Positions 8,673 through 61,416 of a DNA stretch of 64,000 bases are shown here, piece by piece. Positions within the stretch are counted from its first letter, which is position 1. Every line of letters starts with the position of its first letter. Origin of the DNA: Branchiostoma floridae (lineage: Eukaryota; Chordata; Leptocardii; Amphioxiformes; Branchiostomatidae); NCBI RefSeq assembly GCF_000003815.2, contig NC_049990.1, positions 9,439,539-9,503,538 of the forward strand, given 5' to 3'. A program made the position numbers and the translations under genes. The notes under the pieces are model-generated. The model had not been told where the DNA came from and did not search any database. It saw nothing but the letters and a program-made list of their open reading frames with translations.

Positions 8673-8703
8673 ATGCCACCACGAGACTACGCCGCAGAGA
8701 AAG
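8673..8703 (+). CDS. MCM7: MCM7 exon 1 (residues 1-10)
   Basis: It encodes [10 protein letters not shown] and ends one base into codon 11 at donor GTAAAT. MxxxDYAxEK is the standard MCM7 amino terminus, which supports this ATG. Confidence 0.9.
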
Positions 8704-11700
8704 GTAAATTTTTCCCATCGTGTTTTTGTCTTCTTTCGCTGTTTTTACTCCAGAATAATCATTTTCCGAAGAATCCAACTTATTTTGTAGTACTTCAATT
8801 AGTGAAGTAACAACCTATCTCACTCAATTGGTTAAATATACTGGCATTGATCGAGAAAATATGCACCGGACTCCCTTTGTGACTGGGGAGGGGGGCAGGT
8901 TCCTAACGAATTTAAAGCAGTATTCAAATCTATGAGCCGTTGAAGCAGGTATTGTGTCGCATTTTAAGACTTAACACCTTCATGTGTTACTATATTTAAG
9001 TTCACATGTACTTTTTAGGATAAGTTTTATTAATAAGTGTCAATTATGTTTTGATTTGATATCCATTTGTAGAAAAGATCAAGCAGTTCATCGCCGAGTT
9101 TTACACCAGTGGAGACAAAGGCGGAAAGGACTTCAAGTATGCACAACAAATGGTAGGTGCAAGATTTACAAGGATCGTAGTTTTGAATGGTTCAAAACAA
9201 AAAGAAGAAGAGAATGTAAGTGAGTCCAGTACCTGCTGAATTTACCAAGGGGACTTGGACTTTCTGATACTTCCCCCTCCTGCAAAAGTGGTGTCTTTCT
9301 GATGTCACTGCTGGACATTCATACTGTGAACAAGGTCAACAAGTCCGAAAATTTATAGGTTAAATCCCTATAGTGTTAGAATTTTTTAATAATGTTTATT
9401 TTTGGTGCTCCTCAGGTCAAGATCGCGCACCGTGAGCAGGTAGCGCTGACCATCGACATTGAGGATGTTGCCGAGGTCGACCCTGACCTTGCGGAAGCCA
9501 TGGTGGAAAACACGCGACGCTACATCCACCTCTTTGCAGACGCTGTCTACGACATGCTGCCTGACTACAAACAGAGAGAGGTGCATTTTTTGTTGTTATT
9601 TTCTGTCAAAAACGTCTTGAGAAACTGCTGTGGACGCAATTAAAATTCTTTGAAAGGATTCAGAAAAAAGGCAACATTTCAATGTATTTCAAAGTGCCAC
9701 AACATGTATCCATTTATGCCAAATAGCAGTGACACAAGCAACTGGATATGATTTATTGAAACGGTCAGATGTTTCAGGTAAAATCCACTACTTTTCACCA
9801 TAAATACTGAAGAGATCTTGTTGGAGAGGAGATTTATACATTTTAACTATCCTATCTCTTTTGCATATCAATTTGTATTTAGGATGTATAAACCTGCTCT
9901 TCAATAAGATGTCTTCAGTGTCACTGACGAATGGTAGTGGATTCTACCAGAAACGATAGGCTCTGACTGTTTCCCAAATCTACATCTACATCTACTTGGA
10001 GGTACCCCCAACTGGCCCCACATGGGGCATCGTAGGGGGGGTGAGGTCCCGGGTTAGGGCGGGCAGGCCGCCTGCCTGGCACGGATCCATCCAGTTGCTT
10101 AGTAATTGCTATTTGGCTTATCTTACTACCTGGATGTCTAACCTTCATCGACGCATGTAATAATTTGTTTACTAATTTGTTTGTTTGTTTATGTTGACAG
10201 GTGGAGACCAAAGATGCGCTTGACGTGTACATCCAGCACCGCCTGCTGATGGAGCAGCAGCACAGGGGCGGGGCCGAGCCACGGGATCCGCGTAACCAGT
10301 TCCCGCCAGAGCTCATGCGCCGATTGTGAGTGAAAACAACCTCTCCAGAACCTGAATCTCACTGTACAAACATTGAAAAAGACGTCATATTTTCTGGCAG
10401 ATAGGAATTATTACTGTAAACCTATTTATTATTTGCTGGGACTTGATTTTGTATTTGAAGCTAGGGGAAGGGAGTTTTTTGTGTTTTGAGTTCATGATTG
10501 AAAGAATTCTATAGTCTAATATTAATACCTTTCAATGCATATTATCGTTGCCATGAATTTGAGGCTGGGAGGTCACTGCATAAATGATTTTGTGGTGGAA
10601 GGGGAAAGGAGATTCTCATGTTAAAGTTAATGATTGAAACAATTCTAAAATCCAGTTGTAATACCTTTTAATGCATTTTCTCATTGCCATGAATTCGAGG
10701 CTGGGAGGTCACCACATAAAATAAGTACACTGCAAGCATGTCAAGATTCACAGTAACTGAAAAAAAACAGTCCTGGGCTAACATTCATCATTTTTCCAGT
10801 GAGATCTACTTCAAGGCTCCCGGTCAGCAGAAGCCGTTGGCCATCCGACAGGTGAAGGCGGAAAACGTGGGGAAGCTGGTGTTGGTACGCGGTATCGTGA
10901 CCCGCTGTACAGAGGTCAAACCCATGATGGCGGTGGCCACCTACACCTGCGATAGGTGTGGCGCAGAGACGTACCAACCTGTAAGTATTTTTGGTGCAAA
11001 GTTTTCTTTTACAACAATGAGAGTGAAGAAGAAGAAGTTTACTGAATGAAAACAGCTGGCTACAGCTGAAACATATCAGCTTTTTGTACACTAGTGCTTG
11101 TACTTACCAACTCCAATAGACTGATCCGGACTGTCCATAACAATTAGCAGTTCAACCAATGAGAGTCTGGTAATTGGTGGTTCAGCAATTGACTGCTAGG
11201 ACGTCACAAACATGAGCAGTTGCATGTTTTCATTTTAATGGTAGAGGTGGATGTGGTTGGGGCTCTGGGATCTGTCTATTAGTACATAAATGATGTGTTA
11301 TGCCATGTTTTAATTAGTGTATGAGTGACTGTTGTTTAGCAAATACTTGTTATGTTCATGTTCTTCTTTTACAGATCAACTCCCCGACGTTCATGCCACT
11401 TCAAATGTGCCAGAGCCAGGACTGTGTCACCAATAAGTAAGTGCTTTGTCTAACTTAGATACCAAAAATTGAATACAGTATAAGCCAGTTAATGGATAAG
11501 CGCACACTTCTGTTAATTGCACGGAATCCCAAAATCCCCAAACCGGTACGGTTCAGCTAGATAACTTCGCATTATCGCACCAGCCGGATAATTGCACGAA
11601 ATTAACTTGCAAATAGGCCGTGCAATTAAGCGGCTTGTACTGTACCATCTCAATATTAATTGAGTTCCACATCATTTTGACTATAAATCTAGATAGCATT

Positions 11701-60886: not shown

Positions 60887-61058
60887 ATGGCGTGTGTGGG
60901 ACTGTTGGTGACGGTGTTGGCGGCCAGTTTTGTCGGGGGAACTCTCTCGCAAGTCCAAGACGATGCGGCGGTAGTCCCGACGTGTCGAGAAGTTCAGCAA
61001 GCATGGGTGTACAAGAGTTTGGGCCCCAAGGACCTCGTGCCGACAGCGCCGCGCATAG
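60887..61058 (+). CDS. Glypican exon 1 (signal peptide)
   Basis: It encodes MACVGLLVTVLAASFVGGTL and the first conserved cysteine region, ending one base into G58 at donor GTATGC. Confidence 0.85.
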
Positions 61059-61416
61059 GTATGCCTCATGAACTAACCTCTAGAATCAGAAATTACCAAC
61101 TATAACAACGTTTTGGCCCGTCTCGGACCCATGTGGTAGTGTCGGCGCCATTCCCTCGTTGTGTGGCGAATTTGTTGCATTTTATTTTGCATTATTTAGA
61201 AACTTGTAGCCATGCTGGTATGTGCAGCTCTGCTTTATGTCGTGTGTACACATACAGGGCACGATCTGGCTGTCTGCTCCAAAGGGAAAACTTGCTGCAC
61301 CAAGAGAATGGAAGACAAGTACCTGGAAGCCTCCAAGAAGGATTTCCAAGACGTCGTGCAGTCCACGAGCGCTTACTTAAAATATCTAGTGTCGCAAAAC
61401 GCCGCCAGGTTTCAAG
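60887..61416 (+). CDS. Glypican, GPC3/GPC5 (Dally) type, 5' part (exons 1-2)
   Basis: Glypicans are GPI-anchored heparan-sulphate proteoglycans at the cell surface that tune Wnt, Hedgehog, BMP and FGF signals. Exon 1 is 60887-61058 (ATG in strong context, ACCATGG) and exon 2 is 61258-61416. They join in phase 1 and give residues 1-110. Residues 1-22 form a signal peptide. The conserved cysteines seen are C33 (TCREVQQAW) and C64, C70 and C71 (VCSKGKTCCTKRMEDKY). The ending YLKYLVSQNAARFQ matches the FLIxxNAAxFQ pattern of GPC3 and GPC5 better than the GPC4/6 pattern. Donor sites are GTATGC and GTACGT. The remaining core, glycosaminoglycan sites and GPI signal must lie right of the window. Confidence 0.85.
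61258..61416 (+). CDS. Glypican exon 2 (start of the cysteine-rich core)
   Basis: It has an ACATACAG acceptor and GTACGT donor. It encodes HDLAVCSKGKTCCTKRMEDK and DFQDVVQSTSAYLKYL, the diagnostic part of the glypican call. Confidence 0.88.

What the first reader, a model, noticed from the sequence alone, without database searches (positions are those of the whole stretch)
8673..61416. MCM7 next to a GPC3/5-type glypican: a possible pre-duplication home of the miR-17~92 family loci
Seen: MCM7 and the 5' end of a GPC3/5-type glypican are consecutive, same strand, about 10.8 kb apart. Known: in human the miR-106b~25 cluster is in an MCM7 intron, miR-17~92 (MIR17HG) lies beside GPC5, and miR-106a~363 lies beside GPC3. 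Inference: the three vertebrate clusters may descend from one ancestral MCM7 - miR-92/25 - GPC3/5 neighbourhood, later split by genome duplication and gene loss, and this window preserves the two protein-coding anchors. I found only seed-level miR-92/25 matches inside the window, so the microRNA, if linked, lies outside or has moved.
Basis: partly seen in the sequence, partly recalled or inferred. Interest (0 to 1): 0.78.

Follow-up and report, generated by a model that had tools for sequence, protein, structure and literature searches.

The report
Conserved MCM7–glypican neighbourhood, without its microRNA
An invertebrate chromosome keeps the same group of genes that surrounds a famous vertebrate microRNA family, but the copies of that microRNA found in this genome sit on other chromosomes, one of them inside an intron of a sister gene of the vertebrate host.

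Summary
In detail: a complete MCM7 (8673-50108, +) and the 5' exons of a GPC3/5-type glypican (60887-61415, +) are 10.8 kb apart. Beyond the window follow a second glypican (GPC1/2/4/6 type) and TAF6, all within about 226 kb of contig C12; STAG is on the same contig. Human 7q22.1 has MCM7, TAF6, GPC2 and STAG3 together, and MIR17HG sits 5' of GPC5-GPC6 as MCM7 sits 5' of the two glypicans here. The anchors do look like one pre-duplication neighbourhood. The microRNA half fails in this genome: of five miR-92 hairpins found, four are on C3 and one on C1, none on C12 or in the window. Best reading: the miR-17~92 ancestor entered MCM7 in early vertebrates before their duplications, and MIR17HG and miR-106a~363 mark MCM7 copies that lost their coding exons. 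Whether the chordate ancestor already had it there is open. Unexpected: the C1 hairpin is expressed miR-92d and lies, sense, in an intron of MCM5, another subunit of the same helicase. MIR-92 is one of three families left unplaced on chordate linkage groups (PMC8789304), so outgroup genomes can decide.

The parts
8673..50108 (+). MCM7 coding span. 18 homologous coding stretches (edges are those of the matched peptides, not refined splice sites): 8673-8702, 9072-9152, 9416-9580, 10216-10323, 10816-10983, 11378-11437, 11798-11872, 12122-12223, 12558-12632, 13059-13142, 13392-13526, 13981-14136, 14416-14553, 14902-15084, 15694-15774, 16223-16393, 33465-33572, 49908-50105
16394..33464 (+). MCM7 intron of 17.07 kb before the exon [28 protein letters not shown]; no miR-92 or miR-25 hairpin found in it
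33575..49903 (+). last MCM7 intron, about 16.3 kb; no miR-92 or miR-25 hairpin found in it
50109..60886 (.). MCM7-to-glypican spacer, 10.8 kb; no miR-92 family hairpin found
60887..61415 (+). first two coding stretches (60887-61060, 61263-61415) of a GPC3/5-type glypican; the gene runs on past the window end (further matches up to C12:9515141)

Best explanation
The window preserves part of an ancestral chordate gene neighbourhood, MCM7 - GPC3/5 - GPC1/2/4/6 - TAF6, with STAG farther along the same chromosome. In early vertebrates, before their genome duplications, a miR-92-type gene (which grew into the miR-17~92 cluster) came to sit in an intron of MCM7 and was transcribed as part of the MCM7 pre-mRNA. 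After duplication one copy kept both the helicase gene and the microRNAs (7q22.1, MCM7 with miR-106b~25, near GPC2 and STAG3). Two other copies kept only the microRNAs plus the glypican pair (MIR17HG - GPC5 - GPC6; miR-106a~363 - GPC3 - GPC4), so those non-coding host genes stand where an MCM7 copy stood. In amphioxus the microRNA was not found at this place: its known miR-92 genes are on two other chromosomes, one inside an MCM5 intron. Shown here: the amphioxus block, its gene identities, and the positions of five miR-92 hairpins. From paper passages: the human 7q22.1 gene list, MIR17HG 5' of GPC5, GPC5 next to GPC6. Recalled only: the Xq26 order. Inferred: the direction and timing of the microRNA's move, and that MIR17HG replaces a lost MCM7 copy. 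The functional sense, also inferred: hosting in a G1/S-induced MCM gene ties miR-92/25 output to the cell cycle.
For: One MCM7 winged-helix match, one STAG place and two glypican genes (nine exon matches) were found in the assembly, all on C12. The glypicans are on one strand with MCM7. Types by sequence: A 254.6 bits GPC3 vs 151.7 GPC1; B 273.6 bits GPC1 and 250.1 GPC2 vs 125.6 GPC3. TAF6 lies about 74 kb 3' of the last matched glypican B exon (128.9 bits to human-type TAF6). Human 7q22.1 list, apparently in map order: COPS6, MCM7, AP4M1, TAF6, CNPY4, MBLAC1, C7orf59, C7orf43, GAL3ST4, GPC2, STAG3 (PMC4263743, one passage). A 516-kb human duplication holds all of MIR17HG and the first five GPC5 exons, so MIR17HG lies on the 5' side of GPC5 (PMC4005632, passages). 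GPC5 and GPC6 are adjacent in human; zebrafish gpc5b and gpc1a are contiguous, and gpc2, gpc3 and gpc4 are all on chromosome 14 (PMC3828384, passages), which fits duplication of one tandem pair. miR-106b~25 is in MCM7 intron 13 (PMC5940376, PMC4834410, passages).
Against: No miR-92 found on C12, so amphioxus does not itself show the microRNA in this neighbourhood. Of seven Pfam families drawn from the human 7q22.1 list and answered, four have a C12 locus (HTH_MCM7, Glypican, STAG, TAF6_C), two do not (Bin3, the MEPCE family, on C14 and C18; DUF3456, the CNPY family, on C15 and C16) and one gave no match anywhere, which the tool itself calls uninformative (ARS2). In human the glypican near MCM7 is GPC2, not a GPC3/5 type. 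No vertebrate genome was available to look for an MCM7 remnant at MIR17HG.
Confidence: 0.62

Rival explanations
1. One reading: the common ancestor of amphioxus and vertebrates already had miR-92/25 at the MCM7-glypican locus, and amphioxus later lost or moved it.
For: The protein-coding anchors are old. Amphioxus has miR-92 genes at two places on C3 and one on C1, so the family has moved or multiplied in that lineage.
Against: No hairpin in the window and none found on C12. PMC8789304 could not place MIR-92 on a chordate linkage group (section 6 read), as expected if positions disagree among lineages.
Confidence: 0.2
2. The cluster was first an independent gene in the spacer between MCM7 and GPC3/5, where MIR17HG sits relative to GPC5, and only the 7q22 copy was later captured into an MCM7 intron. 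MIR17HG is then not a decayed MCM7.
For: MIR17HG lies 5' of GPC5 (PMC4005632) as the 10.8-kb spacer does here; two of the three vertebrate clusters have no protein-coding host (recalled).
Against: Needs a later move into an intron and does not explain why MCM7 itself is missing beside GPC3 and GPC5.
Confidence: 0.2
3. The MCM7-glypican adjacency in amphioxus and the glypican neighbourhoods of vertebrate clusters are unrelated coincidences.
For: Two of the six 7q22.1 families that gave a match are not on C12, and amphioxus chromosomes have extensive internal rearrangement (PMC7269912, passage).
Against: Four families on C12, three of them within about 226 kb; chance for TAF6 alone about 9e-4 and for the MCM7-glypican spacing about 4e-5, both reckoned after the fact; the order of the two glypican types matches human GPC5-GPC6.
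Confidence: 0.06

Closest known systems
Human 7q22.1: MCM7 with miR-106b~25 in intron 13, AP4M1, TAF6, GPC2, STAG3
   Same: MCM7, TAF6 and glypicans within about 226 kb here; STAG on the same contig (human list)
   Different: No miR-25/92 hairpin found in amphioxus MCM7; two glypicans lie there, the nearer one GPC3/5 type; Bin3- and DUF3456-family genes are elsewhere
Human 13q31.3: MIR17HG - GPC5 - GPC6
   Same: A GPC3/5-type gene followed by a GPC1/2/4/6-type gene, with another transcribed gene on the 5' side of the first
   Different: That place is MCM7 in amphioxus and a non-coding microRNA host in human
miR-92 genes of amphioxus (bbe-miR-92b and bbe-miR-92d as printed in PMC5650284)
   Same: bbe-miR-92d-3p is identical over 22 letters to the C1 hairpin, and bbe-miR-92b-5p matches the C3:13.639 Mb hairpin at 21 of 22

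Membership tests
miR-17~92 family locus | a miR-92/25 or miR-17 hairpin in the locus | tested here: not met
   Permissive Rfam scan lists no mir-92/25/17. 0 of 45 TTGCAC sites reach the pairing of the five real hairpins; the 14 AAAGTGC (miR-17 seed) sites fold poorly, best 18 of 22 paired at -15.9 kcal/mol, without a real miR-17 control
miR-17~92 family locus | a GPC3/5-type gene followed by a GPC1/2/4/6-type gene beside it | tested here: met
MCM7 | closest to MCM7 among solved MCM chains, and an MCM7 winged helix at the C-terminus | tested here: met
Glypican, GPC3/5 subfamily | Pfam Glypican and a clearly higher score to GPC3 than to GPC1, GPC2 or Dally-like | tested here: met
   (254.6 vs 151.7, 135.8 and 136.9 bits); no GPC5 chain appeared among the hits
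vertebrate 2R paralogon of 7q22 / 13q31 / Xq26 | orthologues of the shared genes on one amphioxus chromosome | tested here: inconclusive
   Of 7 families answered, 4 have a C12 locus, 2 are elsewhere, 1 gave no match
vertebrate 2R paralogon of 7q22 / 13q31 / Xq26 | gene trees showing duplication at the base of vertebrates | not testable with these tools
   no vertebrate genomes offered
miR-92 (the C1 hairpin, outside the window) | hairpin with the miR-92 mature sequence on the 3' arm, and expression | tested here: met
   fold -37.0 kcal/mol over 69 nt; RF00464 43 bits, under the gathering score of 47; mature identical to sequenced bbe-miR-92d-3p of B. belcheri. Expression in this species was not tested
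intronic microRNA of MCM5 (the C1 hairpin) | lies between two coding exons of one MCM5 gene, same strand | tested here: met
   coding stretches ...LQLYCDR and YLCDRVVPGN... flank it in a ~0.92-kb intron; MCM5 184.6 bits vs 25.7 for MCM7

The most novel reading that the evidence does not exclude
MIR17HG and the miR-106a~363 host are the remains of MCM7 copies that lost their coding exons and kept only their intronic microRNAs, so the oncogenic miR-17~92 cluster is a fossil intron of a replication-helicase gene; and miR-92 has entered an MCM helicase gene at least twice, MCM7 in vertebrates and MCM5 in amphioxus, because that location ties it to S phase.
Probability: 0.42. Interest if true: 0.78.

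Novelty: new variant of a known kind. Interest (0 to 1): 0.58.

Why it matters
miR-17~92 is a much-studied microRNA cluster, yet where it came from is unsettled: PMC8789304 names MIR-92 as one of three families it could not place on a chordate linkage group, and PMC4421800 derives miR-106b~25 by duplication within a chromosome (passages). A preserved MCM7 - GPC3/5 - GPC1/2/4/6 - TAF6 block gives a definite pre-duplication map, predicts that all three vertebrate loci are whole-genome-duplication copies of it, and predicts where relics of lost MCM7 copies should be sought. The miR-92d gene in an MCM5 intron is a separate link between this microRNA family and the MCM2-7 helicase.

Tried and rejected
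Rfam at gathering threshold as a negative test: rejected as uninformative, since the real miR-92 hairpins of this genome score below it. Eight of the 13 genome matches to the mature miR-92 pattern were rejected, by eye on the folds, because they do not make a miR-92-like hairpin (L005, L007, L008, L009, L011-L014); the reversed-pattern control gave 8 matches, so eight false ones is about what chance gives. Hits of plant microRNA models at 58859-58951 (both strands) and 9804-9921 were set aside as probable inverted repeats; I did not fold them. miR-17-seed sites in the window (14) gave no convincing precursor. Direct inheritance of the MCM5 residence into MCM7 was considered: MCM5 and MCM7 are far too old a pair (recalled) and the MCM5 intron lies in a different part of the gene, so independent entry is preferred. 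A shared segmental duplication behind MCM7-TAF6 and MCM5-TAF6L was considered and left as unexplained for the same reason. Whether human intron 13 corresponds to the amphioxus 17.1-kb or 16.3-kb intron could not be tested. The Xq26 gene order rests on recall (one search found 0 papers). Literature searches on or near the idea: (listings, plus passages or sections of 13 papers; one search returned 0 papers). I saw no statement of the MCM7-glypican origin or of miR-92 in MCM5, which is weak evidence of novelty because most subscription papers are not held and long listings were capped.
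Full report
What was checked. The window is C12:9439539-9503538 of a 513-Mb, 431-contig assembly. The assembly is unnamed; its size and its large contigs (C1 35.3 Mb, C3 34.2 Mb, C12 23.0 Mb, C19 17.1 Mb) fit Branchiostoma floridae (size recalled), whose karyotype is n = 19 (PMC7269912, passages). I call it amphioxus on that basis, and because its miR-92d matches that of B. 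belcheri. If contig numbers follow chromosome numbers, C12 is one of the twelve amphioxus chromosomes in 1:1 correspondence with a chordate linkage group and C3 derives from a pair of them (same passages); that mapping is my inference.

The genes in the window. MCM7 runs from ATG 8673 to the stop at 50106-50108 in 18 homologous coding stretches. Nine of these, concatenated, score as MCM7 well above every other MCM. The gaps between successive stretches are about 0.25 to 0.64 kb up to 16393, but the last two introns are 17.1 and 16.3 kb. The glypican starts at 60887, 10,778 bases after the MCM7 stop, same strand.

The neighbourhood outside the window. A whole-genome search with the Pfam Glypican model gives nine exon matches, all on C12 and all on the + strand: gene A (the window's, 9500792-9515141) and gene B (9571991-9599230). 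Gene A is GPC3/5 type (254.6 bits GPC3, 151.7 GPC1) and gene B is GPC1/2/4/6 type (273.6 bits GPC1, 270.8 Dally-like, 250.1 GPC2, 125.6 GPC3). A listing of open frames of 130 aa or more between them showed no other gene that I recognised, which is weak evidence. TAF6 lies at C12:9672954-9674096 (128.9 bits to TFIID subunit 6). The only STAG match is at C12:20.55 Mb, and the only MCM7 winged helix found is the window's. Tests that did not fit: Bin3, the MEPCE family, is on C14 and C18, DUF3456, the CNPY family, on C15 and C16, and ARS2 matched nowhere. So four of the seven families from the human 7q22.1 gene list that were answered have a C12 locus; an eighth (PF00928, AP4M1) did not complete.

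Comparison with human. PMC4263743 lists 7q22.1 genes, apparently in map order, with MCM7, AP4M1, TAF6, five more genes, GPC2, STAG3 (one passage). PMC4005632 puts MIR17HG on the 5' side of GPC5 (passages). PMC3828384 says that GPC5 and GPC6 are adjacent in human, that zebrafish gpc5b and gpc1a are contiguous, and that gpc2, gpc3 and gpc4 are on chromosome 14 (passages). That paper calls the gpc5b-gpc1a arrangement one not seen in mammals; a single ancestral GPC3/5 - GPC1/2/4/6 tandem, as amphioxus has, explains it simply. That miR-106a~363 lies 5' of GPC3, followed by GPC4, is recalled and comes from no call.

Where the microRNAs are. A mature miR-92 pattern with up to one mismatch matches 13 places in the genome (reversed control 8). 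Five fold as miR-92 precursors with 19-21 of 22 mature bases paired: C3:13639053 and 13639482 (a pair), C3:15364684 and 15365178 (a pair), and C1:12400559 (minus strand). An independent covariance search with RF00464 returns four of these five and nothing else; the fifth, C3:13639053, scores 26.2 bits. None is on C12. With three loci placed at random the chance of missing C12 is 0.87, so the absence is no surprise under independence; it matters only because the hypothesis predicts a presence. These searches score only the best candidates, so a diverged copy could be missed.

The MCM5 finding. The C1 hairpin lies between the MCM5 stretches ending LQLYCDR and beginning YLCDRVVPGN, in an intron of about 0.92 kb, on the MCM5 strand (184.6 bits to MCM5 against 25.7 to MCM7). 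Its 22-letter mature sequence is identical to bbe-miR-92d-3p as printed in PMC5650284 (passages; compared), so it is expressed in a related species. That paper lists it as down-regulated in its table but speaks of up-regulation in its discussion, and cites a J Immunol 2013 study in which miR-92d targets complement C3 (not read). The chance that one of three miR-92 loci falls in an MCM2-7 gene is about 3.5e-4 to 1.5e-3 if each of the six genes spans 10 to 41 kb, reckoned after the fact. The C3:15.365 Mb pair lies about 0.45-1.0 kb upstream, same strand, of the first exon I could assign to a WD40 gene that looks like WDR76 (name recalled); the solved-structure search shows WD40 relatives only, DDB2 among them. 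The pair is intronic only if acidic open frames farther 5' belong to that gene, which I did not show. The host of the C3:13.639 Mb pair, if any, is unknown. TAF6L sits 171 kb from the miR-92d hairpin, so an MCM gene, a miR-92 gene and a TAF6-family gene are linked on C1, as they are in human 7q22.1. I have no good explanation; chance is about 7e-4 after the fact.

How it most likely works. For miR-106b~25 the review PMC4834410 states that E2F1 strongly stimulates Mcm7 transcription and that miR-106b and miR-93 inhibit E2F1 translation, a negative loop (passages). Intronic residence in an MCM gene gives such coupling at once. I infer that this is why an MCM host is favoured and that miR-92d follows MCM5 in the same way; neither co-transcription nor E2F control was tested in amphioxus.

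Verdict. Homology of the neighbourhood with the vertebrate clusters' surroundings is likely. The presence of the microRNA there before amphioxus and vertebrates parted is not supported by this genome. The reading I favour is entry of the microRNA into MCM7 on the vertebrate stem before the duplications, followed by loss of coding exons from two copies.

Noticed in passing
C1:12400559 (-), locus L006 (outside the window): miR-92d hairpin, sense, in a ~0.92-kb intron of MCM5; mature sequence identical to bbe-miR-92d-3p.
   Followed up: yes
C1:12571511-12574729 (L051 covers part): A TAF6L-type gene lies 171 kb from the MCM5-hosted miR-92d, mirroring TAF6 near MCM7 on C12.
   Followed up: partly
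C3:15364638-15365207 (L003, L004, L048, L049): A pair of miR-92 hairpins lies just upstream, same strand, of exons of a WD40 gene that looks like WDR76 (name recalled); whether the pair is intronic was not shown.
   Followed up: partly
window 3986-6658 (-): Single open frame of 890 aa with leucine-rich repeats (Pfam LRR_8) and several imperfect repeats resembling RRESLPLATLPNTYWPWKIPENG near its C-terminal end, seen by eye.
   Followed up: no
window 16394-49903: The last two MCM7 introns are 17.1 and 16.3 kb while the gaps between the other coding stretches are about 0.25-0.64 kb; reason unknown.
   Followed up: partly
window 58859-58951 and 9804-9921: Stretches that attract plant microRNA models, the first on both strands; probably small inverted-repeat elements, not folded.
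   Followed up: no
window 43459-43488 and 43651-43680: Two equal-scoring short Rfam matches 192 bases apart, suggesting a local duplication inside the last MCM7 intron.
   Followed up: no
C12:9379208-9429461 (L025-L030): Four similar open frames upstream of the window that look like UDP-glucuronosyltransferase-type genes (identity recalled).
   Followed up: no
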